DNA of 64,000 bases, taken from Chryseobacterium oryzae (GTDB lineage: Bacteria; Bacteroidota; Bacteroidia; Flavobacteriales; Weeksellaceae). Position numbers and translations under genes: made by a program. The DNA lies in the NCBI RefSeq assembly GCF_022811665.1, contig NZ_CP094529.1, forward strand, positions 1,116,001 through 1,180,000, read 5' to 3'. The notes under the pieces are model-generated. The model ran no database searches. It saw only the letters and a list, made by a program, of their open reading frames with translations, and was not told the DNA's origin. Of this stretch, positions 1-15,287 are shown piece by piece; the stretch's first letter is position 1; the number at the start of each line of letters is the position of its first letter.

Positions 1-1229
1 TAAATATTGAATTTTTATCTAAATTATTTCCAAAAATTTTATTTCCAGATACAATACTGGATAATTTATCAGTTTTTTCATTTATTGATTTTATAACAGT
101 TACAGATGGGTTCTTAAATATTGAAGAAAAAAAACTATTTCAACTTTATTTCACTTTAAATAGTGAATCAGACCAGGATTATAATGTTTTAAAATCCAAT
201 AAGTTTAAGCAACAAAGAGACGCTTTAAAACTATTAAATAAAATATCTATATGTTTTCAGATATTTCAGTCTATTGATGATGAGTCTATTAAAGAGATTT
301 TGTACGATTCCGATGGAGATTTTTTTGTTTTTACAAACCAAGAATTTAAGTACATAAACGAGAAAAATAATACGAAGTTCACTGCTGATTTTGTAACATA
401 CACATTTTCACTTTTGAAACAAGATGAATTTACTTTAGTTGGAAGTATTAATCATTTTTTTTCAAAAAGAACCATTAATAGTGAAAAATTATTTTATTGG
501 AAAAATAATTATCTAATTAAAAATGACTATTTCTTACTGTTTAGCTTTGACAATTTTGTAAATGACCTTGAAGAAAAATTGCATAATATAAGAGATAATG
601 ATTTTGAATTGTATTTTAAAAGTTATGCTAGTCGTTTTCTAAGTAGTAACGATGCTACAATTTTAGATAAATTATTGCCATTATTGGAGATCATATTAAA
701 TAACGAGTTTAATATGTTTTTAAGTTTGAATGATAGTATTTTATTTAAGAAGAAATCTAATAAATTTTTATATTCAATTGATACTTTGGATGATGTTATT
801 AATGCAATTAGATTGAAACAATCTGTTTTTTTTGAAAATGGTAGATATGAAGATTTAGTGCCTATGCAACTTAAAGATATTGCTTTTATGATAAGAAAAG
901 ATTTGTCAACAGTTTCAAGAACCTTACTAAAAAAGCAATTTGTTCTTAATAACAAGCTTGTCCCTTATAAAATATTATTTAGTGATGGATCAATTAAAAC
1001 GATTACAGGAAATAGTGTTTCACAGTATGAAATTATGAACAAAATTTTATTTATTATTAATTCTGAAGACAAAAGAAAACCATTGACTGATGACTCAATT
1101 ATGATGATCTTAAATGAACAAGGATATATTATTGCAAGAAGAACTGTCGCAAAATATCGTGAAGAGAAATTGGGAATATTAAAAAGTACATTGAGGAAAG
1201 AAAAGAGTAACTCTAATAATATTAGCTAA
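1..1229 (+). CDS. Divergent sigma-54 (RpoN)-like protein, C-terminal part
   Basis: The reading frame is open from the left edge (first full codon at base 3) and ends at 1229, so about 408 residues are visible and the true start lies outside the window. The C-terminus carries both RpoN signatures. The first is the HTH segment with PMQLKDIA...STVSR. The second is an exact RpoN box RRTVAKYR followed by EEKLGI. RpoN recruits RNA polymerase to -24/-12 promoters and needs AAA+ activators. The ~270 residues before the HTH are rich in Asn, Lys and Phe and do not look like the usual core-binding region; only a short stretch before the HTH (DVINAIRLKQSVFFENG) is recognisable. The DNA is clearly more AT-rich than the chromosomal genes further right, suggesting acquisition. 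No activator gene is visible. The DNA-binding assignment is firm; function as a working sigma factor is inference. Confidence 0.75.
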   Translation, partial: NIEFLSKLFPKILFPDTILDNLSVFSFIDFITVTDGFLNIEEKKLFQLYFTLNSESDQDYNVLKSNKFKQQRDALKLLNKISICFQIFQSIDDESIKEILYDSDGDFFVFTNQEFKYINEKNNTKFTADFVTYTFSLLKQDEFTLVGSINHFFSKRTINSEKLFYWKNNYLIKNDYFLLFSFDNFVNDLEEKLHNIRDNDFELYFKSYASRFLSSNDATILDKLLPLLEIILNNEFNMFLSLNDSILFKKKSNKFLYSIDTLDDVINAIRLKQSVFFENGRYEDLVPMQLKDIAFMIRKDLSTVSRTLLKKQFVLNNKLVPYKILFSDGSIKTITGNSVSQYEIMNKILFIINSEDKRKPLTDDSIMMILNEQGYIIARRTVAKYREEKLGILKSTLRKEKSNSNNIS

Positions 1230-1304
1230 TTGTCAAGTATCAATATTTGTAGAGATTTTCTTTTTCTACTTAATCTTATGTATATTAAGAATGTCTAAAT
1301 TTCA

Positions 1305-1312
1305 TACTTTTG
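1305..1312 (+). promoter_or_regulatory. -7 promoter element TACTTTTG
   Basis: Exact match to the Bacteroidota -7 consensus TAnnTTTG, four bases before the ATG at 1317. Transcription would begin at or very near the start codon, giving a leaderless or nearly leaderless mRNA. I see no good -33 TTTG at 19-21 bp spacing. Confidence 0.5.
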
Positions 1313-1316
1313 CACA

Positions 1317-2387
1317 ATGAGCCAATTAGAAAAATCGCAGCTTTTTCAGTCCATTAAAAATCTTGTTGATACAGCAAGAAATAATATTGTTCGTAATGTA
1401 AATTCGGCGATGTTGTTAACCTATTTCGAGATTGGAAGAATGATTGTGGAGGACGAGCAAAATGGGAAAGAACGTGCAGATTACGCTAAAGAAACGCTTA
1501 AAAACCTAAGTAAACTCTTAAATTCTGAGTTTGGAAGAGGTTTTTCCGTTGATAATCTACAATGGATGAGGAAGTTTTTTCTAACTTATCAAAATTACGA
1601 GACACCGTCTCGTATTTCCAACGAAGAACAAAATTATGAGACACCGTCTCGTATTTCTCAAAAAACTGAAAACAAATCCAATACTAATGCAATTTCTTTT
1701 AATTTATCGTGGTCGCATTATATTCAATTGTTGAAAATCGACAATGAAGATGAAAGAAAATTCTACGAAATCGAAGCAGCTAATAATAATTGGAGCATTC
1801 GTGAACTGAAAAGACAATATTGTTCCGCAGTTTATGAACGTTTAGCTTTAAGTCGTGATAAAGAAGGTGTAAAAGAATTGGCTAAAAAAGGACAAATCAT
1901 AGAAAAACCTACCGATGTTTTGAAAAGCCATTATGTCTTAGAGTTTTTAGACCTAAAAGAAGACAATCGCTATTCTGAAACCGATTTAGAAACAGAAATC
2001 ATCAACAAATTAGAGCATTTTATGCTTGAATTGGGAAAAGGATTTTTGTTTGAAGGGCGACAACGCAGATTTACATTCGAGGGAGATAGTTTCTTTGTCG
2101 ATCTGGTTTTTTACAATCGTTTGCTGAAATGTTTCGTTATTTTCGATTTAAAAATTGGGAAACTCACCCACCAAGACATCGGACAAATGCAGATGTACGT
2201 CAATTATTATGATAGAATGATAAAACTACCCGAAGAAAATCAAACCATCGGAATTATTCTTTGTAAAGAAGAAAACAAAACCGTTATCGAATTTACCCTT
2301 CCTGAAAACAATAAAACCATCTTTGCAAAAGAATACAAAGCCGTACTACCAAGCAAAGAAGAACTAAAACGCCAAATCGAAAAATAA
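1317..2387 (+). CDS. YhcG/DUF1016-family protein with PDDEXK nuclease domain
   Basis: 356 residues. The N-terminal half (about 10-190) is the alpha-helical DUF1016 domain, with LVDTARNN, YFEIGRMI and the WSHYIQLLKI stretch. The C-terminal half (about 200-350) is the PDDEXK-like domain, with LLFEGRQRR-type start, DLVFYNRLLKCFVIFDLK carrying the D...D-x-K core, and GQMQMYVNYYD. Members are common in mobile and defence-linked regions and are thought to be DNA nucleases, but their cellular role is not settled. The linker contains a 13-residue tandem duplication (QNYETPSRIS occurs twice) encoded by a palindrome-bearing DNA repeat. It is a single gene with its own -7 box. Confidence 0.85.
   Translation: MSQLEKSQLFQSIKNLVDTARNNIVRNVNSAMLLTYFEIGRMIVEDEQNGKERADYAKETLKNLSKLLNSEFGRGFSVDNLQWMRKFFLTYQNYETPSRISNEEQNYETPSRISQKTENKSNTNAISFNLSWSHYIQLLKIDNEDERKFYEIEAANNNWSIRELKRQYCSAVYERLALSRDKEGVKELAKKGQIIEKPTDVLKSHYVLEFLDLKEDNRYSETDLETEIINKLEHFMLELGKGFLFEGRQRRFTFEGDSFFVDLVFYNRLLKCFVIFDLKIGKLTHQDIGQMQMYVNYYDRMIKLPEENQTIGIILCKEENKTVIEFTLPENNKTIFAKEYKAVLPSKEELKRQIEK
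1590..1657 (+). repeat. In-frame tandem repeat carrying small palindromes
   Basis: Two 29-bp units (1590-1618 and 1629-1657, 39-bp period) differ at one base. Each contains GAGACACCGTCTC, a 5-bp stem with a 3-nt loop. The period is a multiple of three, so the reading frame of the surrounding DUF1016 gene is kept and the peptide QNYETPSRIS is duplicated in its interdomain linker. Confidence 0.85.
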
Positions 2388-2420
2388 AGAGATAAGTCCA
2401 AGATACGCCTCAGCAAATAA

Positions 2421-2517
2421 CATAATCGAAATTATACGCACACGCCACCGCTACGGGGATTGCCTCCACTTCGTTACTGCAACTGCTAACAAGGTGCGCC
2501 TATAATTTGAGATTATG
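2421..2517. repeat. 97-nt imperfect stem-loop
   Basis: Left arm segments CATAATC (2421-2427), AATTATA and CGCAC pair with right arm segments GTGCG, TATAATT and GATTATG (ending 2517), separated by small internal bulges. The ~50-nt apical part is GC-rich. It could be a folded recombination or transfer site, a structured RNA, or a relic of one. Confidence 0.6.
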
Positions 2518-3462
2518 CTAAATGCTTCCCTACAGTCGGGCATAGCCCTTTGTGTCAGCCAACGCTCTGTCGTCCTTCGATTCATATTTTGTTAACAGTA
2601 CAACTATTCTAATTTCCCACCCACCCATATTTTAGGATGCAAAAAAATGATGCAGAAGAGTAGTGTATTGCCAATCGCTACAGTCGCTTCATAGTTGAAA
2701 CTATTTTAAAGGAAATAAAAAAATAGTTCATCTATTCAGCCACTTTCACTCACGCACATAGCAGTATTCCTTTCTTCCTACAGCTGCTTTTTCCTATGCA
2801 ATATTTTCATCCCATTCCAAAAATGCGATTGTTTCATAGGCTAATAGTTTCAGTGCATTTTTGCATCGGTCTGAAAACGCTACCGCCAAGCTGCTTCCGT
2901 CAGGCAGTCATACAGCTATCTTTCCCTCCGCTTATCATACTTTCGTCTTGATTCTTGGTTCTTGTTTCTTGAATTTGTAGTAAAGCATCATTTTTTCGCG
3001 AGCTTTTTTACCCGTTTTTGCCTTTTCTTCCCTATGCTAAATCCAACCTTTTCCAGTTCCTTCACAATATGGTTATGCAAGCATATCCATACTGTTTCGT
3101 CACTGCACGCAGGAGTATGTCGCCAAAGCAAATCCCATCTGCTACATACCCCTGCCTTTCCCCTCGCTCACCATCTTTTGCCAAGCAACTTCCTTCACCT
3201 TTTTAACCATTCTTAGAACTTTTGGGTTCCTACAAAAAATAAAAAAAGCAAAGCAAGATAGGGGGCTTCCATTTCCAGCCGCTATGTTCAGTAAAGGTCA
3301 AGCACTTCGTGTTTTTGAAAAAAAGATTTTTGGCTAAAAAATATAGCAAAAAACTTTTTTCAAAAAACCTTGACAGAACGCCCCGCCCCCTTTTAATCGG
3401 CTTTCTTTTTTTCTTTTTTTTTCGGTTTTTTTCTTCGTTTTCTTTTAAAAATATTTCGGCGG

Positions 3463-3487
3463 AGCATGAATTTTTAAAACTCATGCT
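3463..3487 (+). repeat. Inverted repeat directly before the ATG at 3488
   Basis: AGCATGA (3463-3469) and TCATGCT (3481-3487) form perfect 7-bp arms around an 11-nt AT-rich loop. The right arm ends at the base before the start codon, so in the mRNA it would form a hairpin occluding initiation, or it could be an operator. Confidence 0.6.
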
Positions 3488-3913
3488 ATGTCAAATTTCA
3501 AAGTACGCACGTACAATTCCGAAAAGGAAACGCCCAAAAATGCTCTATTTATCCTGTCAAGAGGAAAAAACGCAGGGAAACCACTATTTCAGCCTTGCCC
3601 CAACTGTTACATTCTGTATTGCAACAATTCCGAAGAACTCGAAAACCTATATTGGACCTTCTTCACCCTTTGGAAAAACGGTTTTTTTCACCCTTACCTT
3701 TGTGGAAGTGTTATCGAAATGCTTCGCCTTTTGGAACTAAAAAAGATTTTGCAAACTTTTATCGTTCCAAGCCTTACCAAGATGGAGCAAAACGAGAAAA
3801 TCCTTTCAGATATCAAAGCCATTTATCAATTGGAGCAGAAGTTTACAAAACAACTGCAACAGCTTTCAGAACTTCGCTCCATTCTCGTAAGAAAGTACTA
3901 TTTCCAAATCTAA
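3488..3913 (+). CDS. Small conserved protein of Bacteroidota mobile elements (DUF6943-like)
   Basis: 141 residues, soluble, no signal peptide. The N-terminus has a beta-rich segment with FILSRGKNAGKPL followed by CPNCYILYC, which has a CxxC pair and could bind metal. A helical C-terminus ends in a coiled-coil-like stretch (about 95-135) reminiscent of the spacer helices after type I restriction specificity domains. I believe it belongs to the uncharacterised DUF6943 family, but this is from memory. It stands alone between structured non-coding DNA and a strong terminator. Confidence 0.6.
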   Translation: MSNFKVRTYNSEKETPKNALFILSRGKNAGKPLFQPCPNCYILYCNNSEELENLYWTFFTLWKNGFFHPYLCGSVIEMLRLLELKKILQTFIVPSLTKMEQNEKILSDIKAIYQLEQKFTKQLQQLSELRSILVRKYYFQI

Positions 3914-3920
3914 AATTTCA

Positions 3921-3943
3921 AAATCCCCACTTCGGGGATTTTT
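3921..3943 (+). terminator. Rho-independent terminator
   Basis: AATCCCC and GGGGATT arms around ACTTC, followed by a T run, 8 bases after the stop of the small gene ending at 3913. Confidence 0.85.
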
Positions 3944-4048
3944 CATTTAATTGAACTTTATTTCCACCCAAAGACGTAGATAAGTGCAACATATTTCGCC
4001 CTCCTAAATAACGGAATGCAAGAAGATGAAAGCAATAGAAGTATATAG

Positions 4049-4072
4049 AAAAAGCCCGACTAAAAGCCGAGC
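4049..4072 (-). terminator. Probable terminator of the 5970-4098 gene module
   Basis: On the minus strand GCTCGGC and GTCGGGC form a 7-bp stem with two G-T wobbles and a TTTTA loop, followed by TTTTTC. It lies 26 bases downstream of the last stop of the minus-strand module. Confidence 0.6.
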
Positions 4073-4097
4073 TGAAAAAGAGCTAATTGCGAGTTTT

Positions 4098-4391
4098 TTA
4101 CTTTGAATCCTGGAGTGAATCTTGATCTAGCTTCGGATTTTCTGGATTTTTTTCTGATTTTTTTCCGAATTCTTCGGAGCTGATTGCCGTTTGTGATATC
4201 GCACTGGCAAGAGTTCCACCGAGAAGCAAATACCCACCAATACTGACTAGAGTAGCGGGCAATGCAACCGGAGCAGCCACTAAAGTACCACCGACAGCCG
4301 ACAAAATAAGTCCTGCAGAGCGAATTATTTTAAACCATTTCGGAGTAGGTTCTTGGATTCTGTTTACTAAATTGAAATTATTTGCTTTCAT
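4098..4391 (-). CDS. Small membrane protein, holin-like layout
   Basis: 97 residues. A glycine/alanine-rich hydrophobic stretch (about 25-65) looks like two short transmembrane segments separated by a Pro/Gly turn. It is followed by a charged Lys/Glu/Asp-rich tail. The start overlaps the end of the upstream gene by 14 bp, so the two are probably co-translated. The layout is like a holin and the neighbours are compatible with a lysis cassette, but I cannot name a family. Confidence 0.65.
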   Translation of the reverse strand: MKANNFNLVNRIQEPTPKWFKIIRSAGLILSAVGGTLVAAPVALPATLVSIGGYLLLGGTLASAISQTAISSEEFGKKSEKNPENPKLDQDSLQDSK

Positions 4392-4653
4392 TGTCTTGAA
4401 TTTTTGTAAGGTTAAACTCTATTTTATTGACTCTTTGCTCCAAATATTCTACTTTTTGATTGAGTAGATCCTGAGAGTTTTTAAACTCAGTTTTGATCAG
4501 CAAAGCCATTGTTTTGACTTCGGAAATATCTCTTTCCATATTCTTGAAATCGGAGTGTAATTGCCTGATAAAATAAGCAACAACTGCCAATAAAAGACTT
4601 GAAACCGAACCAAACAGAATATTGATGTCTAAGGTTGCGTTCATGAGTTCCAT
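4378..4653 (-). CDS. Small membrane-anchored coiled-coil protein
   Basis: 91 residues. One N-terminal transmembrane helix (about 10-30) is followed by a long charged helix with heptad-like spacing (about 32-88), containing RDISEVKTM and VEYLEQRVNKIE. Phage and phage-derived modules often carry small proteins of this type, with holin- or spanin-like topology. It starts 3 bases downstream of the DUF5675 stop. A second Met at residue 4 is an equally possible start. Confidence 0.65.
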   Translation of the reverse strand: MELMNATLDINILFGSVSSLLLAVVAYFIRQLHSDFKNMERDISEVKTMALLIKTEFKNSQDLLNQKVEYLEQRVNKIEFNLTKIQDNESK

Positions 4654-4656
4654 GTT

Positions 4657-5109
4657 TTAGAATTGAAAATTGTTTTCGATGGAAATTCCATTATCCTTTC
4701 TGTTAAGAATGGATAGGAGTTTTGGATAAATCATTTTGTAAGCATCGGTACTTTGCAAAACCTGAAAATCACCATCTTTTTTAATATAACTAAGACCGCA
4801 AAGCGGACAACCAGCCGTTTGAGTAATCGTATTTCCAATATGGATATAAACAGCGTCAAAGGTTGGTAAACCGTCTATTTCTATCATTCCACGATGCATA
4901 ACGGGAAACCTATTGGCGTAGTCTGCATTCTTGCCACCCCAAGTATTTAAGGTTAAATAAAATTCACCTGTCGGAATTGCCGTTTGCTTCATTATTTTTA
5001 TTTCACGGATTTTGTCTTCCAACAAAAAACATTGAAAAATTCCGTCAATGTATAAATGCGAAAGCGTGGATTGTTTGCCTTGAGCAACACGAATTATTTT
5101 TGTTCTCAT
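4657..5109 (-). CDS. DUF5675-family protein
   Basis: 150 residues matching the DUF5675 family as I remember it: GxxSTLSxLYIDG, a CFLLEDK start, IPTGEFYLTL in the core and HIGNT...TAGCPLCG towards the end, which has conserved His and Cys residues. The family is common in Bacteroidota phage-like and tail-like gene groups. Its fold resembles L,D-transpeptidase or YkuD-type proteins in the HIGN...GC pattern, but no activity is established. It lies in a module with two small membrane proteins, and a terminator separates it from the gene upstream. Confidence 0.75.
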   Translation of the reverse strand: MRTKIIRVAQGKQSTLSHLYIDGIFQCFLLEDKIREIKIMKQTAIPTGEFYLTLNTWGGKNADYANRFPVMHRGMIEIDGLPTFDAVYIHIGNTITQTAGCPLCGLSYIKKDGDFQVLQSTDAYKMIYPKLLSILNRKDNGISIENNFQF

Positions 5110-5126
5110 AACATCTTTTTATCAAA

Positions 5127-5153
5127 AAAGCCTTCCCGAATTGAGAAGGCTTT
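5127..5153 (-). terminator. Terminator between the 267-aa gene and DUF5675
   Basis: AAAGCCTTC (5127-5135) and GAAGGCTTT (5145-5153) are perfect 9-bp arms with a 9-nt loop, flanked by A and T runs. It sits just after the stop of the upstream gene, so that gene is likely made in excess over the downstream ones. Confidence 0.85.
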
Positions 5154-5166
5154 GATTAAACATTTT

Positions 5167-5970
5167 CTAAAAAACTTCCTCAATTTTGAGACAGTTACCG
5201 CTCGCAAAAGGGTAATACTGACTGTTGACCTCTTGGAAAAACTCAATTCCGATACACTGAACTACCGAAACATTAGCCCCTAATGTTGGTGTACCAGGGA
5301 ATTGTGCAGTAATGGTAGAACCTGCATAAGCCGTATTTAACGGAATATATCCCGAATACTCAACGATAGTCAATTCGTTATTTGCCATATCGTCTGGCTC
5401 ATAACTTCCTGTAGTCGGATTGTATGAAAAATCTGATAATACTGCTAAAGCATTAATTAAGCGAAAATGAGTTGAACCTGAAGGGGCAGAAATCAAATCA
5501 GCCGGATTAAACGGAGCAATTACAAAATCTGAAGAATCTCTTCCTGCAGTATGTGTAACATCATACGGAGCATTGAAAATACCACTAATAGAAAGATTTT
5601 TGTTGAACTCAAAACCTTCTAAATATTTTCGTTGTGTAGAAACTTCTACTTTTCGGTAGCCTCTGGCTTCCGTTCCGTCTTCCAAGTTGATTTTCTTCAT
5701 AACAGAAGTTAATCTTCCTGTAACTTGTGAATCAGTAAATTTGCCCATTAACGCAGATAAAGCCGTTCTGAGCGACTTTCCAACTTTGGCGCATCCGCCA
5801 AATTCGTTCATATTTTCGCGAGTTCTTTCGAACTCAGGGGCGCTTTTCACTTGTTCGGCGGTAGGTCCGCCTACCATACCAGCGAAAAAACCTTCTTGCC
5901 CTTTGATTTTGAAATGTCTTACATCGCCAATTGTTCCGACGTATTTCATAAGACCTTTTTGTCTTGCCAT
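5167..5970 (-). CDS. Uncharacterised 267-aa protein, possible structural protein
   Basis: No signal peptide and no membrane segment. The N-terminus starts MARQKGLMKYVGTIGDVRHFK. The middle has a charged helical part with repeated Arg/Lys, and the C-terminal half is beta-rich with many Gly, Thr, Ser and Asn and little Lys. I recall similar hypothetical proteins next to DUF5675 genes in Bacteroidota but know no function. A strong terminator directly after it and its phage-like neighbours suggest an abundant structural protein; this is inference. Confidence 0.6.
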   Translation of the reverse strand: MARQKGLMKYVGTIGDVRHFKIKGQEGFFAGMVGGPTAEQVKSAPEFERTRENMNEFGGCAKVGKSLRTALSALMGKFTDSQVTGRLTSVMKKINLEDGTEARGYRKVEVSTQRKYLEGFEFNKNLSISGIFNAPYDVTHTAGRDSSDFVIAPFNPADLISAPSGSTHFRLINALAVLSDFSYNPTTGSYEPDDMANNELTIVEYSGYIPLNTAYAGSTITAQFPGTPTLGANVSVVQCIGIEFFQEVNSQYYPFASGNCLKIEEVF

Positions 5971-6078
5971 GATTGTAAATTTTAAGTATTAGAAAAGAAT
6001 GAAAAACACTGTTGTCTAGACAGATATAAATTTCTTGAATTAACTTTACATAAACAATAGATAATATACTGTAAACCA

Positions 6079-6636
6079 ATGAAATACAATGCAGTTATAC
6101 CAAATCAAACGGAAATAGACCGCAACTTATCCATAGTTGAGCAAGAAAATTATTTTCTAATGAAAGACATCCAAATAGAAACTCATTTGATAATTGAAAG
6201 AGTTTTAGACGGAGATAGTTTAATAGTGAGACAAGAATACGGGCAAATAAGAAAGGAAATAAGATTATACGGATTGGACGCTCCCGAAGTGAAGATAAGC
6301 CGAAAAACAAAGGAAGACGAAGTCAAAAGCCACGTTCCTGCATCTTTGTTGGTACAATATGGACTGATGAGTTTAGATTTTATGGTAACTCTTGCACCTG
6401 TTGGTACAAGAATTACCATTTTGACCGAACCCAAAAATAGAGTAGACTTCTGGAAAAGACAATTGGCTTATGTTATTCTACCGAACGGAAAATGCCTAAA
6501 TGAAGAGTTAATAAAAAATGGCTATGCTAAAGCAAGCCACCATTATTACTGCGAAAAATTAACTATCTACCAAGCAATGAATTTTGAAGCCAAACAACAA
6601 AAGCGTGGAATCTATCTATTCATCGATGTTTTATGA
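6079..6636 (+). CDS. Thermonuclease (staphylococcal nuclease)-family protein
   Basis: 185 residues. The SNase OB-fold runs from about residue 35 to the end. VLDGDSLIV has the calcium-binding Asp, IRLYGLDAPEV has the catalytic Arg, second Asp and Glu, and DFWKRQLAYVILPNG has the second catalytic Arg; LNEELIKNGYAKA is the conserved helix. All key residues are present, so a calcium-dependent 5'-phosphodiesterase activity is likely. There is no signal peptide, unlike the secreted S. aureus enzyme. A Met at about residue 28 (MKDIQIE) could be the real start. It is divergent from the module at 4098-5970 and converges on the distal end of the cassette array. Confidence 0.85.
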   Translation: MKYNAVIPNQTEIDRNLSIVEQENYFLMKDIQIETHLIIERVLDGDSLIVRQEYGQIRKEIRLYGLDAPEVKISRKTKEDEVKSHVPASLLVQYGLMSLDFMVTLAPVGTRITILTEPKNRVDFWKRQLAYVILPNGKCLNEELIKNGYAKASHHYYCEKLTIYQAMNFEAKQQKRGIYLFIDVL

Positions 6637-6639
6637 TTT

Positions 6640-6657
6640 GTTGTACATATGTTGTAC
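6640..6657 (-). repeat. Two extra core-like sequences at the distal array end
   Basis: GTTGTAC occurs twice on the plus strand (6640-6646 and 6651-6657), in the same orientation as the attC-like core at 6728. These may be leftover cores from lost cassettes. There is no matching inner arm next to them. Confidence 0.45.
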
Positions 6658-6727
6658 TTTTTTAAACAAAAACGTAAGAAAGTACCATTAATAAAGGACA
6701 TCTTATATAGACTTTATATAATACCGT

Positions 6728-6737
6728 GTTGTACGCA
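6728..6737 (-). repeat. Truncated attC-like site (fourth)
   Basis: Plus-strand GTTGTACGCA is identical to the start of cassette 4 (reverse complement of 7137-7146). The next bases on the minus strand keep the GTATT of the inner arm and then diverge from the other three copies, so the element was broken just inside its first stem. Confidence 0.7.
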
Positions 6738-7136
6738 GTATTTTTGGCTCGTCGAATTGAATTTAGTGCCATTAAATTTGATTCAGAGAAGTGAAAATTC
6801 AAGTGCGACAAATATTTTCACTCATTTTTATCACACTTTTTATTCATGTCGATATTCACACAGTTTGTAAAAGTTAAAACTTTTTTTCAAAAATTTTCAG
6901 TGTAAAAATTTAAGAATTTTTTAAGTCAAATACATCCTTTTTTTAGTTTTTTATTCGAATATTATTCAAAAAATTTTGGAGAATTTTGCTTTAATTTTTG
7001 CCATTAATTTATTCAGTTAAATTTTAGAAAATATGAGAGAATTTAGTCATTTTCATAACAAAATTCAGCGTAAATATTTCAGAATTATTTTTCAAAAAAC
7101 TCCTGAAATTGTTTTCAGCGCGAGTTTTGAGGATAT
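6738..7136 (-). other. Cassette 4 body without an ORF
   Basis: About 400 bases with no ORF of useful length on either strand, very AT-rich. Words such as ATTCAG and TTTTTAAGTCAAATA recur and are shared with cassette 3. It may be a decayed cassette, a non-coding RNA cassette or a spacer. Confidence 0.6.
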
Positions 7137-7337
7137 TGCGTACAACGAATAAATATTGGCGAAGTGCGGGAATTCGAAGAACTTTAGTTCAACATAGACC
7201 AAACTGAGCAAATGCTTTTTTCGTGAAGACTAAATTACAAAAAATGTCGAAACGAAAAAGCATTTTGCGAACAAAAAAAGTGGAGTAGTTCAACTGTGAA
7301 TTCAAGCCCGCATTTTGCCAATATCCTGTTGTCTGCA
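7137..7337 (-). repeat. attC-like element 3 (ends cassette 3)
   Basis: Minus-strand core TGCAGACAAC at 7337-7328 is the exact complement of the start of cassette 3. The terminal core GTTGTACGCA is at 7146-7137. Inside are the conserved ATATTGGC and TGCGGG arms and the palindrome GAACTTTAGTTC (7179-7190). An inner stem GCAAATGC (7208-7215) with GCATTTTGC (7260-7268) is extended by TCGT and ACGA. Compared with copies 1 and 2 the inner stem has different bases on both sides that still pair. Confidence 0.85.
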
Positions 7338-7786
7338 GTATTTTTAATTCAAGAGAGTGAATTTCATTGAAATTCAGTTTCGAAGAATTCAAAATCAAAG
7401 ACGACAGTTTCCATTTTGAAATTTAGTTTTTTAATCCAAGATTTAAGAACTCTAGATTAAATCCAATATTTGAATATTTGCTTTTAAGATTTAGATTTTA
7501 AGTCCAGAATTTAAGAATATTTGATGCCAATATTGCAGAACTAAATTCAGTAATATTCGTTTCAATTTAGAATTTAGTCTGTTTTAAGCTTGCTTTGATT
7601 TCAGTTTATTTAAAGCATTTTTATTCAGATAATTTTCATGGAATTCAGTTTTTAAAATCCAATTATTATTCGATGCTTATTTGAAATTTTTAGAATTATT
7701 TTTAAGTCAAATATTTAGAAATAAAACCCCATTTAAATTATTTCAAAATTTGAAAAAGTCTCTATTTAACGCTACTTTGGTAATAT
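7338..7786 (-). other. Cassette 3 body without an ORF
   Basis: About 450 bases, very AT-rich, with no credible ORF. It repeats short words (ATTCAG, AATTTAAG, TTTTTAAGTCAAATA) that also occur in cassette 4, suggesting the two share an origin or a non-coding role. Confidence 0.6.
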
Positions 7787-7986
7787 TGCAGACAACGGAA
7801 AAAGTATTGGCGAAGTGCGGGCAAAAATGAACTTTAGTTCAATTTTCGACCAAACGTAGCCGATATTTTTTCCATGAAACTAAACTACAAAAAATATGTG
7901 AAATGGAAAAATAGCGGCGGCTAAATATTACGAATAGTTCAACTTTGCACTTCACCCCGCATTTTGCCAATACAATGTTGTCTGTA
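7787..7986 (-). repeat. attC-like element 2 (ends cassette 2)
   Basis: Minus-strand core TACAGACAAC at 7986-7977 is the exact complement of the start of cassette 2. The terminal core GTTGTCTGCA is at 7796-7787. GTATTGGC and GCCAATAC arms, the TGCGGG/CCCGCA stem, GAACTTTAGTTC (7829-7840) and an inner stem GCCGATAT (7859-7866) with ATAGCGGC (7911-7918) plus CCAT/ATGG predict one long hairpin. Confidence 0.88.
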
Positions 7987-8007
7987 GTTTCTTTTAGCAA
8001 TCACTAT

Positions 8008-8208
8008 TTAATCATCATAATCATGATTTTCTTCTTCTTCATCTTCGTCTCCGACACGATTAATACTTCGATTTCCCGTTGAATAATCGGTTGAAATTTC
8101 ATCTATTGATGTTGAACCACATTCTTCACAAGTCCTAATCGGATAATCATAAGCCATGTCACAACTTGCACATGCCCATTTTATCTCAGTTGAAAAATTA
8201 TTCCACAT
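8008..8208 (-). CDS. Cassette 2 zinc-ribbon protein
   Basis: 66 residues. CASC and CEEC form two CxxC knuckles about 13 residues apart, a probable zinc ribbon. The C-terminus is a strongly acidic Asp/Glu tail, including EDEEEE. It starts 6 bases after the preceding ORF and is the last gene before attC-like element 2. The function is unknown; the acidic tail could be a protein-interaction or DNA-mimic segment. Confidence 0.65.
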   Translation of the reverse strand: MWNNFSTEIKWACASCDMAYDYPIRTCEECGSTSIDEISTDYSTGNRSINRVGDEDEEEENHDYDD

Positions 8209-8214
8209 AAAAAA

Positions 8215-8487
8215 TTACCATTTAGGTTTTCCGTCTTTTCCAACTATTGTATTAGCAATATCATTTGCTGAATTAGAATTGCCATCTTTTTCTGTGCTGT
8301 CATAAAGTGTGCTTACATATCTTGCAACTCCTCGACCTCCATCTGAACTATATTCAGTATCTTTATCAGTTCTGTATCCGTTATTATTCAGTGCATTAGC
8401 AATATCTTCAAAATCAAGATTTTTTCCAGATCGTTTTGCTCCTTCTACCATTCCTCGTACAAAAGTGTCTTTTTCCTCATTTCTCAT
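8215..8487 (-). CDS. Cassette 2 small soluble protein, unknown function
   Basis: 90 residues, no membrane segment. The N-terminal part (about 5-45) is helical with FEDIANALNNNGYRT. This resembles small helix-turn-helix or recombinase-associated segments in which a helix is followed by NGYRT-type text. The C-terminal half is Gly/Ser/Asp/Asn-rich and probably flexible. It is the first gene of cassette 2, about 110 bases from the cassette start, and probably co-transcribed with the zinc-ribbon gene. I do not recognise a family. Confidence 0.6.
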   Translation of the reverse strand: MRNEEKDTFVRGMVEGAKRSGKNLDFEDIANALNNNGYRTDKDTEYSSDGGRGVARYVSTLYDSTEKDGNSNSANDIANTIVGKDGKPKW

Positions 8488-8600
8488 AATATGTAATTAT
8501 TCCCGATTTATTCCACTTTGGAACTAAGGACATCGAATTGGAATGAATTTTTAAATTAAATTTCCCTGCCCGTTGTTTGAATATCCACTTTACATGGAAT

Positions 8601-8800
8601 TACAGACAACGGAAAAAGTATTGGCGAAGTGCGGGAGAAATATGAACTTTAGTTCAAGTTCGACCAAACTGAGCCGATGCTTTTTCAATGGAACTAAATT
8701 ACAAAAAAAATGTAAAATTGAAAAGCAGCGGCGACAAAAAAGGTGAGGATTTTCAATTCAGACTTAAACCCCGCATTTTGCCAATACAATGTTGTACGAC
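8601..8800 (-). repeat. attC-like element 1 (ends cassette 1)
   Basis: Minus-strand core GTCGTACAAC at 8800-8791 is the exact complement of the attI-adjacent start of cassette 1. The terminal core GTTGTCTGTA is at 8610-8601. Arms: GTATTGGC (8618-8625) with GCCAATAC (8780-8787), and TGCGGG with CCCGCA (8770-8775). The palindrome GAACTTTAGTTC is at 8644-8655. Inner stem: GCCGATGC-TTTTTCAAT (8673-8689) with ATTG-AAAAGCAGCGGC (8717-8732). The whole element can fold into a single branched hairpin. Confidence 0.88.
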
Positions 8801-8804
8801 GTTT

Positions 8805-9551
8805 TTACTTGATTCCATATTCTTTGAAATATTTTTTTACATTTTCTTTATTGTATTTGTCTTCTCCACGCCAAAAAAGTACAAAAGTCCAATCATGTTT
8901 TCCTGGTTCTTTTCGGTCAAATCTTAATGGTTGTAAAATATCTGCACAACCTAAAATTTCCATTAACATATGTCTTTCATTTTTAGAAGACTTAATTACT
9001 TCAGAAAGTCGATCTCTTAAAATACTCGGAGTTTCACCAATTTTCGAGGTATTAATCGTATCTAATATATTCTGAAATATTTGTATATCAATTTCTGTTG
9101 GCTGTGGTATTATTTCTTTTTGCAGTAGAGTTAAATCAAGCAAATTATATAAGCCATTTGAGTGTCTTACTCCGCTCCATTTTATTCTTTCAAAATTTAG
9201 AATATTTAAATCCTCATTTTCTCCAAATCCTAAAAGATAATCAGAATAATTATTTGTCTGTAATATTCTTTCGGCATTTCTGTAACTTGCTAATCCTGAT
9301 CTCCAATCAAGTCTTTTATTTGTTAAACTAGAAAGAAAAGCGTTTGTAATTTTACTTAATGGAATTTCATTTACGGTTTTTCTTAATTTTTCAAGCAATT
9401 CTTTTTTTGTTATTGAAATAGGTTCAAACATTAAACCTTTTTCTTTCGCATACTCAAAATCTTCGCTTGATAATTTTCTATTTTCGTCACTCAACCAACC
9501 TTGAGAACTCCAAAAAGTTTTGAATAAAATGTTTTTTGCTTTTTTATCCAC
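8805..9551 (-). CDS. Cassette 1 protein, unknown function
   Basis: 248 residues from a GTG at 9551, which lies 17 bases from the attI-like core. It is soluble, mostly helical, with no signal peptide or membrane segment. Notable conserved-looking stretches are LLFKTFW-like text at the start, LTNKRLDWRSGLASY in the middle and HDWTFVLFWRGEDKY near the end. I recall similar hypothetical proteins in bacteria but no function. As the cassette closest to attI it would be the best expressed from the adjacent promoter. Its 3' end lies 4 bases from attC-like element 1, the tight packing expected of a gene cassette. Confidence 0.75.
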   Translation of the reverse strand: MDKKAKNILFKTFWSSQGWLSDENRKLSSEDFEYAKEKGLMFEPISITKKELLEKLRKTVNEIPLSKITNAFLSSLTNKRLDWRSGLASYRNAERILQTNNYSDYLLGFGENEDLNILNFERIKWSGVRHSNGLYNLLDLTLLQKEIIPQPTEIDIQIFQNILDTINTSKIGETPSILRDRLSEVIKSSKNERHMLMEILGCADILQPLRFDRKEPGKHDWTFVLFWRGEDKYNKENVKKYFKEYGIK

Positions 9552-9567
9552 AATATTGTTTTAAAAT

Positions 9568-9577
9568 GTCGTACAAC
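9568..9577 (-). other. attI-like recombination core
   Basis: Minus-strand GTTGTACGAC, exactly complementary to the opening core of attC-like element 1. It has no long hairpin of its own, unlike the attC-like elements, and lies between the recombinase gene and the first cassette. The predicted exchange point is between G (9577) and T (9576). Confidence 0.75.
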
Positions 9578-9580
9578 TCT

Positions 9581-9611
9581 CAAATATACGAAAGTTTTAG
9601 AAATTAACAAG
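9581..9611 (-). promoter_or_regulatory. Cassette promoter (Pc-like)
   Basis: Minus-strand CTTG (9611-9608), a 19-bp spacer and TATATTTG (9588-9581) closely match the Bacteroidota -33/-7 promoter. Transcription would begin inside or next to the attI-like core and read into cassette 1. An integron cassette promoter occupies the same position. Confidence 0.7.
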
Positions 9612-9664: not shown

Positions 9665-9706
9665 TATATTTGTTATACAAAATACGCAATTCGCATTTTG
9701 TATAAC
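9665..9706 (+). promoter_or_regulatory. Recombinase promoter with a 12-bp-arm palindrome
   Basis: TATATTTG (9665-9672) is a -7 box for the recombinase gene. Overlapping its last base is a perfect inverted repeat, GTTATACAAAAT (9672-9683) and ATTTTGTATAAC (9695-9706), around 11 bases. The repeat ends 2 bases before the ATG at 9709. It could be an operator or a leader hairpin that limits recombinase synthesis. Confidence 0.6.
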
Positions 9707-9708
9707 TT

Positions 9709-10791
9709 ATGGAAGGTTCTTCAACTGATTTTCAAAGTGACTTTTTTCAAACTAAATTGGGAAGTCACAAAGATAGAAAAGTGATATGGGTGAAATTTGA
9801 GAAAAATTTTAACCTTATCAGAATTCTCAAGCAAACCACAAAATCTTTTTGGAGTAATTCTCAAAAATGCTGGTATGTTGCCGATAATAATTTTAACAGA
9901 AATCTGTTCGGAATCGAAAAACAAGTTATTGGGAAAGATGTTTTGATGAAAATTGGCACTATTAATTTACCTGAGCTAACGCGTTTTCAGGAACATATTA
10001 TTCTTAAAGGTTACAGCCAAAATACGCTAAAAACCTATACCGTAGAATTTGCACAACTGCTTTATATTCTTAAAGATTTCCCTGTTCAGAGTCTGTCTGT
10101 AGAAAAAATAAGGAGTTATTTGTTGTATTGCCATCAGACTTTAGAATTGTCAGAAAATCAAATTCATAGTAGAATGAATGCACTGAAATTTTATTTCGAA
10201 AAAGTTTTGCGAAGAGAAAAAATGCTTTTGGAAATTCCAAGACCTAAAAAGAAACAAATTTTGCCAAAATATCTGGATCAGGAAGACATCAAAAATATTT
10301 TGAACGTTACCGAAAATCCAAAACATCGACTTGTCATTAAGCTTTGTTACGGAATGGGACTTCGTGTAAGCGAAATCGTCAATTTAAAAGTTGAAGACAT
10401 AAGCAGTAGTAAAAAACGGGTTTTCATAGAAAATTCTAAAGGTAAAAAAGATCGTTACGTAAATCTTCCGGATAGTGTTTTAGATGATTTAAAAGTTTAC
10501 CATGAAGAATTTAAGCCTCAAAAATATCTTTTTGAAGGACAATACGGGGGTCAGTACACCGTAAGAAGTGTACAGCAGATTTTCAAAACTGCAATGAAAA
10601 AAGCTAAAATTAATAAAACTGTAGGTATACATGCCCTAAGACACAGTTACGCAACTCATCTACTAGAATTTGGTACTGATATTTCCCTAATTCAAAAACT
10701 GTTAGGACATAATGATATTAAAACCACTCTTATTTACACCCATGTAGCTAAATCTGTTAAGAATGTACAGTCTCCATTAGATAAAATTTAA
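9709..10791 (+). CDS. Tyrosine recombinase of the cassette array (integron-integrase-like)
   Basis: 360 residues. The N-terminal ~80 residues form an extra domain with VIWVKFEKNFNLI and FWSNSQKCWYV, seen as I recall on other Bacteroidota integrases. Next come a SAM-like core-binding domain (about 84-170) and a catalytic domain. Catalytic residues are R219, a Lys in GKKDR (244-246), H308, R311, H334 and Y343. The protein ends SPLDKI, as IntI proteins end with SPLDxL. The spacing R219 to H308 is 89 residues, close to XerD (96) and much shorter than IntI1 (131), so the IntI-specific insertion is absent. It diverges from the attI-like site and is the obvious candidate to move the cassettes. Confidence 0.9.
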   Translation: MEGSSTDFQSDFFQTKLGSHKDRKVIWVKFEKNFNLIRILKQTTKSFWSNSQKCWYVADNNFNRNLFGIEKQVIGKDVLMKIGTINLPELTRFQEHIILKGYSQNTLKTYTVEFAQLLYILKDFPVQSLSVEKIRSYLLYCHQTLELSENQIHSRMNALKFYFEKVLRREKMLLEIPRPKKKQILPKYLDQEDIKNILNVTENPKHRLVIKLCYGMGLRVSEIVNLKVEDISSSKKRVFIENSKGKKDRYVNLPDSVLDDLKVYHEEFKPQKYLFEGQYGGQYTVRSVQQIFKTAMKKAKINKTVGIHALRHSYATHLLEFGTDISLIQKLLGHNDIKTTLIYTHVAKSVKNVQSPLDKI

Positions 10792-14486: not shown

Positions 14487-15287
14487 ATGCAAGATTATCT
14501 CGAAATAAACAGAAAATCATGGAATGCAAAGGTGGATGCCCATCTTCAGTCAGATTTTTATTTTGTGGAAGAATTTTTAAATGGGCGTACCTCTTTAAAC
14601 TCCATAGAATTAGAACTGTTGGGGAATATTGAAGGTAAATCTATTCTTCATCTTCAGTGTCATTTTGGTCAGGATTCAATATCTCTTTCAAGAATGGGAG
14701 CGAACGTTACAGCAGTAGATCTTTCGGACAAAGCAATCGAAGCCGGGAACAATCTTGCTGAAAAGTGTAACCAAAAAGTAGAATTTATTTGCTCGGATAT
14801 TTATGATTTACCGAATGTTTTAGATAAGAAATTCGACATTGTATTTACAAGCTATGGAACAATAGGCTGGATTCCTGATCTTGAAAAATGGGCAAAAGTT
14901 GTAAGTAAATATATGAAGCCGGGCGGCGAATTTATTATGGCAGAATTTCATCCTGTGGTTTGGATGTATGATGATGATTTTGAAAATGTTTCTTATAACT
15001 ATTTCAACGAAAAGCCCATTGCAGAAACGTACGAAGGAACTTATGCCGATTTTTCAGCCGATATTGTACAGGATTATGTAATGTGGAATCATTCTCTTTC
15101 TGAAGTTTTTCAGAATTTAATTAATGAAAATTTGGAAATTCAAATCTTTAAAGAGTTAGACTGGTCGCCTTATCCATGTTTTAAACATATAGAAGAATTT
15201 GAAAAAGGTAAATGGCGTACAATAAAGTTTGGGAATAAAATCCCAATGGTATATGCCCTAAAAGCACAAAAAAAGTCATCTAACTGA
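14487..15287 (+). CDS. Class I SAM-dependent methyltransferase
   Basis: 266 residues. Rossmann methyltransferase domain at about 45-160: motif I is ILHLQCHFGQDS, an unusual variant without the usual GxGxG. Then VTAVDLSDKAIEAGN (acidic residue binding the ribose), FICSDIYDLP and KPGGEF. The substrate is unknown; similar proteins act on small molecules. Its stop codon lies inside the arms of the terminator that follows. Confidence 0.85.
   Translation: MQDYLEINRKSWNAKVDAHLQSDFYFVEEFLNGRTSLNSIELELLGNIEGKSILHLQCHFGQDSISLSRMGANVTAVDLSDKAIEAGNNLAEKCNQKVEFICSDIYDLPNVLDKKFDIVFTSYGTIGWIPDLEKWAKVVSKYMKPGGEFIMAEFHPVVWMYDDDFENVSYNYFNEKPIAETYEGTYADFSADIVQDYVMWNHSLSEVFQNLINENLEIQIFKELDWSPYPCFKHIEEFEKGKWRTIKFGNKIPMVYALKAQKKSSN

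What the first reader, a model, noticed from the sequence alone, without database searches (positions are those of the whole stretch)
6638..9577. Integron-like cassette array with self-complementary cassette ends
Seen: each cassette start and its own attC-like core are exact 10-base complements. The pairs are 9577-9568 with 8800-8791, 8610-8601 with 7986-7977, 7796-7787 with 7337-7328, and 7146-7137 with 6737-6728. Within one attC-like element as integrated, the two outer cores only share GTTGT. Known: in integrons the 3' core of an integrated attC belongs to the next cassette and matches that cassette's own attC, which is exactly this pattern. Inference: cassettes circulate by site-specific recombination in this organism. 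Core (GTTGT) and length (~200 nt) differ from the canonical GTTRRRY, 60-140 nt sites, so standard integron searches could miss it.
Basis: partly seen in the sequence, partly recalled or inferred. Interest (0 to 1): 0.97.

Follow-up and report, generated by a model that had tools for sequence, protein, structure and literature searches.

The report
Bacteroidota integrons with a different integrase
This bacterium carries a row of gene cassettes, likely exchangeable, beside a conserved entry site and an enzyme that likely shuffles them; the same layout with different cassettes recurs in other genera of its phylum, and the enzyme lacks the part that published work calls necessary in integrons.

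Summary
In detail: all four cassette-start/own-core pairs are complementary at 10 of 10 bases. It is the recombinase-proximal end of an integron-like platform: recombinase (9709-10791, +), attI with a predicted built-in promoter (9578-9610, -), then cassettes read on the minus strand. 55 such elements were found in the genome stretches fetched; 42 of 49 neighbouring cassettes obey the core-pairing rule exactly (shuffles: mean 3.3, maximum 11). Rule, attI and recombinase recur together in other Bacteroidota. Seven near-identical platforms (recombinase DNA 91-96% alike) carry unrelated first cassettes; duplicated cassettes share exactly one unit. Corrections: the core is GTTRNNNG, not GTTGT; a 19-kb integrative element cuts the window's array at 6720, beyond which it continues for 10 cassettes. 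Surprise: 47 of 47 family rows compared lack the roughly 40-residue stretch holding the I2 insert that published work calls necessary for cassette capture; cores miss GTTRRRY (1 of 51); stems carry conserved wobble pairs rather than extrahelical bases. Recombination is inferred, not observed. New variant of a known kind.

The parts
9709..10791 (+). tyrosine recombinase, 360 aa (integron-integrase-like, without the I2 insert; extra N-terminal domain, residues about 1-85)
   Evidence: Pfam Phage_integrase 139.8 bits; NF040815 204.6 and TIGR02249 186.2 bits, both under their cut-offs; alignment
9578..9595 (-). attI-like entry site ACTTTCGTATATTTGAGA, ending just before the GTT of the first cassette
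   Evidence: 24 of the 28 occurrences of CGTATATTTG in 81 loci are followed by NNN-GTT
9581..9610 (-). predicted cassette promoter: TTG (9608-9610), 19 nt, TATATTTG (9581-9588)
   Evidence: TTG at gap 17-23 in 20 of 24 attI loci, against 8 of 24 at gap 27-33 and 1 of 24 at 37-43; several of the 24 are near-copies
9673..9705 (.). palindrome ttatacaaaatacgcaattcgcattttgtataa in the leader, at the recombinase start
   Evidence: sequence; a like palindrome in the leader of array C
8611..9577 (-). cassette 1 as a unit (GTTGTACGAC to the base before the next GTT), ORF 8805-9551 (248 aa, no family found)
7797..8610 (-). cassette 2 (GTTGTCTGTA), ORFs 8215-8487 and 8008-8208
7147..7796 (-). cassette 3 (GTTGTCTGCA), no ORF of 45 aa or more between its cores; relative of gene-less cassettes in both other arrays (77%)
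6720..7146 (-). cassette 4 (GTTGTACGCA), no ORF of 45 aa or more between its cores; its attC is cut by an insertion
8601..8800 (-). attC-like element 1
7787..7986 (-). attC-like element 2
7137..7337 (-). attC-like element 3
6720..6737 (-). stub of attC-like element 4 (TGCGTACAACACGGTATT); the other part lies at G000:C1:1103629 and below
1..6720 (.). end of a 19.1-kb integrative element (G000:C1:1103629-1122720) inserted in attC 4, flanked by AACACGGTATT repeats; not part of the integron

Best explanation
This is an integron-like gene-cassette platform in which a tyrosine recombinase lacking the integron-specific I2 insert likely excises cassettes at attC-like hairpins and inserts them at an attI next to its own gene. 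Shown by sequence: recombinase, attI-like site and array lie divergently; most cassette starts are exactly complementary to the core of their own attC; homologous cassettes share one unit that ends before the next GTT; near-identical platforms carry different first cassettes. Inferred: the recombinase pairs two folded attC sites, or attC with attI, and exchanges strands in the GTT; a free circle brings the two complementary 10-base cores of one cassette together into a perfect stem end; the bottom strand is the substrate, marked by conserved wobble pairs and an asymmetric spacer rather than by extrahelical bases; a Bacteroidota promoter built into attI (TTG-N19-TATATTTG, ending 3 nt before the GTT) transcribes the newest cassettes; and the window's recombinase also serves, in trans, the 38-element array at 1731-1765k, which has its own attI and no recombinase beside it.
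For: Core pairing in own arrays: 42 of 49 neighbours 7/7 (shuffled mean 3.35, maximum 11 in 20000). In 13 other loci: 36 of 49 neighbours at 6/7 or better, against 20 of 277 non-neighbours. Draw of the order: chains of 3 or more in 7 of 15 loci, 0 of 30 controls. attI; first-cassette core 10/10 in 9 of 19 loci, foreign cores 1 of 342. Recombinase DNA 91-96%, leader 68-100%, first 500 bases of the cassette 47-53% (chance level) in the 21 pairs of seven Sphingobacteriaceae platforms. Unit boundaries: two pairs of duplicated cassettes 96-97% alike over one unit, two more at 90% and 81%, DNA beyond the unit and the preceding attC about 50-56%. Of 51 cassettes, longest ORF of 70 aa or more in array sense in 42, antisense 3, none 6. 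Stem: 98.1% of cells paired, 10 of 18 pairs with changes on both sides. No match over the TIGR02249 (IntI) cut-off in any of 20 genomes, own included (its 14 control genomes hold no IntI either, so there was no positive control).
Against: No recombination, circle or expression was observed. Lower energy of the bottom strand holds in 51 of 51 own elements (one inherited asymmetry) but in only 15 of 24 elsewhere, so strand choice is not proven. 8 of 15 recombinase loci of the draw show no chain of 3, and 10 of 19 first cassettes miss the exact complement. Some arrays of genus-mates fail the rule (L164 4 of 6 neighbours, L167 2 of 2, L171 2 of 2). Most of the genus has no close recombinase (2 of 173 at 1e-80) although at least 32 of 173 hold elements (four candidates scored per genome). 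GTTRRRY and the I2 insert, both marks of canonical integrons, are absent.
Confidence: 0.88

Rival explanations
1. The cassettes are small transposons with 10-bp terminal inverted repeats (GTTNNNNNNN), and the 200-nt elements are simply their right ends.
For: Each cassette is bounded by complementary 10-mers.
Against: The terminal 10-mers differ from cassette to cassette (26 distinct in 51), which a transposase could hardly read; units lie head to tail and end exactly before the next GTT; platforms start at one attI-like site; of 40 cassette ORFs scanned, one looks like a transposase.
Confidence: 0.03
2. A canonical IntI elsewhere in the genome or formerly present made the arrays, and the neighbouring recombinase is a bystander.
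For: The elements look like attC sites; array C has no recombinase beside it, and most genus-mates with elements lack a close relative of the recombinase.
Against: No match over the IntI cut-off in own genome or 19 relatives (no positive control among its control genomes); the recombinase-attI-array linkage recurs in other genera; cores do not fit GTTRRRY (1 of 51).
Confidence: 0.06
3. The arrays are invertible or shuffling modules (Xer or shufflon type) used for phase variation rather than for capture of foreign cassettes.
For: Tyrosine recombinases of Bacteroidota often drive inversions (recalled); the cores are inverted repeats.
Against: Nearly all ORFs point the same way (42 of 45 cassettes with an ORF); first cassettes at one attI differ wholly between near-identical platforms; the bodies of 49 cassettes of the window genome found no match in the 11 stretches of genus-mates compared, apart from a short attC-like element.
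Confidence: 0.03

Closest known systems
Sedentary chromosomal integrons (Vibrio type) with IntI, attI, attC
   Same: Divergent integrase, attI, head-to-tail and mostly single-gene cassettes, complementary R'/R'' cores with the R' of an integrated site belonging to the next cassette, imperfect hairpin sites, gene-less cassettes, arrays without an integrase
   Different: Integrase lacks the I2 insert (77-80 residues between two motifs in 47 of 47 family rows, against 119-120 in two IntI) and has an extra N-terminal domain; core GTTRNNNG instead of GTTRRRY; complementarity extends over 10 bases; no bulge in the 18-bp stem of own elements but conserved G.T pairs; promoter apparently built into attI
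XerA / archaeal Xer-like tyrosine recombinases (NF040815)
   Same: Best family score of the recombinase (204.6 bits); best solved relative 4a8e
   Different: Score under the cut-off; Xer acts on one dif site for chromosome dimers (recalled); here the gene sits beside attI and cassette arrays
'Integron-like' subgroup of tyrosine recombinases of Smyshlyaev et al. 2021 (PMC8138268)
   Different: It states the insert is essential for integron function; the passages seen do not link insert-less members to attC arrays. Whether this family falls in that subgroup was not tested
CALINs (attC arrays without integrase)
   Same: Array C and many genus-mates hold elements without a neighbouring recombinase
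   Different: Array C keeps a leader and attI

Membership tests
Integron (canonical) | Integrase of the IntI clade with the I2 additional domain | tested here: not met
   Insert absent in 47 of 47 family rows (window plus 46 of the 80 loci), present in IntIA and IntI2; TIGR02249 186.2 against 265 bits; two IntI on a long separate branch, the 46-row family at 99/84 (L084 left out)
Integron (canonical) | attI site beside the integrase where cassettes enter | tested here: met
   24 of 81 loci with the site before a GTT; sequences agree up to GTT and differ after it; comparative evidence only
Integron (canonical) | attC sites: R''/R' cores complementary within a cassette, imperfect hairpin | tested here: met
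   42 of 49; covarying stem
Integron (canonical) | Core consensus GTTRRRY | tested here: not met
   1 of 51
Integron (canonical) | Extrahelical bases in the attC stem | tested here: not met
   18-bp stem of 51 own elements without gaps, 98.1% of cells paired; the one example printed for each of 8 other loci shows mismatches, no bulge, in its first 17-18 bp; deeper parts of the hairpin were not tested
Integron (canonical) | Array of mostly single-gene cassettes in one orientation | tested here: met
   42 sense, 3 antisense, 6 none of 51
Integron (canonical) | Promoter in the platform reading into the array | tested here: inconclusive
   Sequence match TTG-N17-23-TATATTTG in 20 of 24; no expression data
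Integron (canonical) | Integrase-catalysed excision and insertion, bottom strand as folded ssDNA | not testable with these tools
   needs an assay; energy bias 51 of 51 own, 15 of 24 others
XerA/XerC/XerD resolvase | Resolvase family score over the curated cut-off | tested here: not met
   NF040815 204.6 against 220, XerC 174.1 against 335.15, XerD 168.7 against 329.6 bits

The most novel reading that the evidence does not exclude
Cassette capture exists in a second form: a Bacteroidota-wide integrase lineage without I2 recombines folded single-stranded attC hairpins, choosing the strand by wobble pairs and an asymmetric spacer, with its own N-terminal domain perhaps taking the place of I2. 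It is either a survivor of the stage before I2 or an independent invention of the integron.
Probability: 0.6. Interest if true: 0.97.

Novelty: new variant of a known kind. Interest (0 to 1): 0.93.

Why it matters
Published work treats the I2 insert as the innovation that made single-strand cassette recombination possible: its deletion abolishes IntI1 function, and the authors state a chicken-and-egg paradox of I2 and attC (passages of PMC7790495 and PMC4792948). A lineage with attC-like arrays and no I2 makes that question directly testable. It also points to a large, overlooked gene-exchange system in a phylum of environmental, fish-associated, gut and opportunistic bacteria: a standard search tool rests on IntI with its extra domain and reports, for Bacteroidetes proper, one complete integron, in Salinibacter (PMC9024848 passages). 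Of 7999 proteins scored (a capped set), 5153 clusters resemble this recombinase at E of 1e-60 or better; how many have arrays is unknown. The one genome read here holds about 50 cassettes, mostly of unknown function (28 of 40 ORFs scanned have no Pfam hit over cut-off).

Tried and rejected

General strand bias by folding energy: true in the own genome, not general (15 of 24). The mismatch signature is the part that is general, and it is weaker evidence of strand choice.

Exact GTTGT anchoring missed most sites; GTT/AAC anchoring was used instead. Of its seven imperfect pairs one is an anchor error (true core ATTAGCAGAA, 9 of 10, read) and one spans an extra short element found later.

Chain search over 86 loci, both strands: chains of 3 or more in 18 of 172 searches (9 loci, 3 of them own genome), against 0 of 172 and 2 of 172 in the two controls; some links in those chains look like chance matches.

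Rfam: 0 families in the window at the gathering threshold. A covariance model was not built; an nhmmer profile and pair counts served instead. The promoter-scan tool and the viral collections were not used.

Rows dropped or chosen: in the pairing count the two C2 fragments and the single D element were left out. The 13 loci were chosen because repeats had been seen there (looked at 48 loci; L102 and L118 came, L131); of the 17 loci, L054, L078 and L125 (one repeat pair each) and L126 (none) were not carried on, and the L093 elements were split by hand. In the tree L084 and the partial IntI1 were left out; L065 was dropped before the alignment because of an internal stop, and 33 other of the 80 loci were never in it. 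In one search elements outside 90-330 nt were left out. One search used 15 of the 20 recombinase places: own genome, G085, G466, G469 and G431 were left out (already seen, near contig ends, or a fragmented assembly); the choice was made before looking for arrays, but three of the 15 stretches are shorter than 13 kb.
Full report
OBSERVATION. On the minus strand each cassette starts with a 10-mer (GTTGTACGAC, GTTGTCTGTA, GTTGTCTGCA, GTTGTACGCA) whose exact complement lies at the start of the element at its far end. Resampling the stretch with a first-order Markov chain gave chains of at most 2 (2 of 2000 trials), against 4 observed.

THE GENOME. The window is G000:C1:1116001-1180000 of a 3.24-Mb genome. 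Its genus is Chryseobacterium by inference: genus-mate G085 has a contig of the same length, with the hit at the same place, as C. piscicola NZ_FTOJ01000009.1. With elements 1-3 as a profile, 55 elements were found in the stretches fetched: 11 at 1092-1104k, 3 in the window, 38 at 1731-1765k, 1 single and 2 partial on contig C2. From core to core the 49 cassettes between neighbouring elements measure 369 to 2906 nt, most of them 450 to 950.

CORE RULE. Anchored on GTT and AAC, 42 of 49 neighbouring pairs have the seven variable bases fully complementary, 3 have 6, 2 have 5 and 2 have 1; shuffling the partners gives 3.35 on average and at most 11 in 20000. Of the two worst, one spans a hidden short element and one is an anchor error. 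Within an element the two cores agree fully in only 2 of 51. There are 26 different 10-mers, so this is not a fixed repeat. GTTRRRY fits 1 of 51.

UNITS. Homologous cassettes at different places share the stretch from GTT to the base before the next GTT, their own attC included: 97.1% over 926 nt for two places in array C, 96.3% over 669 nt and 89.5% over 695 nt between array A and two places in array C, and 81% for window cassette 3 against array C. The attC just upstream is 76-91% alike, as attC sites are among themselves; beyond it, and downstream, alignments give 50-56%, as for unrelated DNA. This is what movement of whole cassettes would leave.

CONTENT. In 51 cassettes the longest ORF of at least 70 aa reads in the array direction in 42, against it in 3, and 6 have none. 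Of 40 cassette ORFs scanned (one search lists 47 and one more that spans two loci), 12 have a Pfam hit over cut-off: two Mrr-type endonucleases, a GNAT acetyltransferase, a class A beta-lactamase-family protein, an AIPR/AbiU-like protein, an M23 peptidase, a transposase and others; 28 have none.

attI AND PROMOTER. Upstream of the recombinase the sequences of relatives agree up to the GTT and differ after it (L051 has GAT there). CGTATATTTG occurs 28 times in 81 loci (window plus 80), against roughly 4 expected, and 24 of the 28 are followed by NNN-GTT. In seven Parapedobacter/Sphingobacterium platforms the recombinase DNA is 91-96% identical and the leader 68-100%, but the first 500 bases of cassette are at chance level (47-53%) in all 21 pairs. 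In 19 loci with enough sequence the exact complement of the first core lies 150-3500 nt downstream in 9; foreign cores score 1 of 342. TATATTTG fits the Bacteroidetes -7 box TAnnTTTG, with TTTG at -33 (consensus from a passage of PMC2483708), and TTG lies 17-23 nt before it in 20 of 24 (gap 19 in 14). So the platform promoter seems built into the entry site. Array C has a like leader and an attI without mismatch but no recombinase in the 4 kb searched; its first core matches the first element at 9 of 10 (sequence).

OTHER GENERA. In 13 loci with repeats near the recombinase or an element, 36 of 49 neighbouring pairs reach 6 or 7 of 7, against 20 of 277 non-neighbouring pairs treated the same way. 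Of relatives in the genus, L168 gives 6 of 8 and L163 3 of 4, while L164 gives 2 of 6 and L167 and L171 none of 2 each. Of 395 genomes drawn from the order, 19 have the recombinase at 1e-80; in 15 of their 20 loci, 7 show chains of 3 to 7, and none of 30 control searches does. The genome-contig scan found 213 relatives and kept 80; every title among them that names a group is of Bacteroidota.

RECOMBINASE. It scores best with the archaeal XerA/integron model and below every curated cut-off. Between KGKKDR and the end of the LRHS motif, 47 of 47 family rows have 77-80 residues and the two IntI 119-120; the missing stretch holds I2 (the position of I2 there is from the alignment with 2a3v, and recall). 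In the tree the 46-row family is a clade (99/84) and the two IntI sit on a branch of length 3.5; long branches make the exact order unsure. An AlphaFold model (mean pLDDT 84, pTM 0.56, 37 sequences) shows an N-terminal beta-beta-alpha-beta-beta-alpha domain with an invariant tryptophan that these searches could not assign.

HAIRPIN. The stem of 51 own elements is 98.1% paired with double-sided changes in 10 of 18 pairs; the outer cores are only 77.5% paired because they belong to different cassettes. Two positions are G.T pairs on the bottom strand in 50 and 51 of 51. The A/C mismatch on the top strand that gives such a pair is present in 51 of 51 own and 23 of 24 other elements; the opposite mismatch occurs in 30 of 51 and 10 of 24. 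The unpaired spacer is 1-4 nt on the R'' side and 5-8 nt on the R' side in the elements printed (up to five per locus). Bottom-strand energy is lower in 51 of 51 own elements but 15 of 24 others.

INSERTION. Window 1-6720 belongs to a 19.1-kb integrative element with an arm-binding tyrosine integrase, a primase/VapE protein and Dnd/Pbe-like genes. It sits in the attC of cassette 4 between copies of AACACGGTATT; the two flanks together form a 198-nt attC and the core rule continues into array A. So the recombinase-linked array holds 14 cassettes.

KNOWN OR NEW. Papers searched: (open-access library only, listings capped). Reviews list Bacteroidota among phyla with integrons (passages of PMC8618304 and PMC9668308); IntegronFinder 2.0 reports earlier In0 only and then one complete integron in Salinibacter (passage); a 2008 survey found intI in the Bacteroidetes/Chlorobi group by requiring the additional domain (passages). 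No paper seen in these listings and passages describes attC arrays with an integrase lacking I2. Subscription papers and preprints were not searchable.

Noticed in passing
window 1-6720 (G000:C1:1103629-1122720, L177): A 19.1-kb integrative element with DndD/PbeC-, DndE/HerA-, VapE- and YhcG-like genes has used an attC site of the array as its integration site (11-bp direct repeats).
   Followed up: partly
L121:1680-1830, G000:C1:1729.7-1765k: A 38-element array with its own leader and attI but no recombinase in the 4 kb searched at its head, 600 kb from the window's array.
   Followed up: partly
L124:5179-5349 and 15068-15210 (contig C2): Two copies of a 308-aa recombinase (same score and identity) on a 57-kb contig, each with a partial attC-like piece just upstream; a third recombinase, with an N-terminal domain like the window's, lies nearby (C2:38324).
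   Followed up: no
window 9673-9705: Palindrome at the recombinase start, with CGTAT/CGCAT motifs like the attI; a like palindrome lies in the leader of array C. Maybe an operator or accessory site.
   Followed up: no
L168, L121:5570-5710: A second, about 138-nt attC type with the same stem plan coexists with the 200-nt type, even inside one array.
   Followed up: partly
L054, L055, L058-L061: Near-identical platforms occur twice each in Parapedobacter defluvii and Sphingobacterium lumbrici, with leaders 99-100% alike between genera: the platform itself seems mobile.
   Followed up: no
Acinetobacter plasmids (TnpF): Tyrosine recombinases about 45% identical to residues 126-358 occur on many Acinetobacter plasmids; from recall, such xerD-like genes lie next to tet(X). 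A link to Bacteroidota platforms would be worth describing.
   Followed up: no
L122:12568-13461: One cassette of the 38-element array encodes a class A beta-lactamase-family protein (function untested).
   Followed up: no
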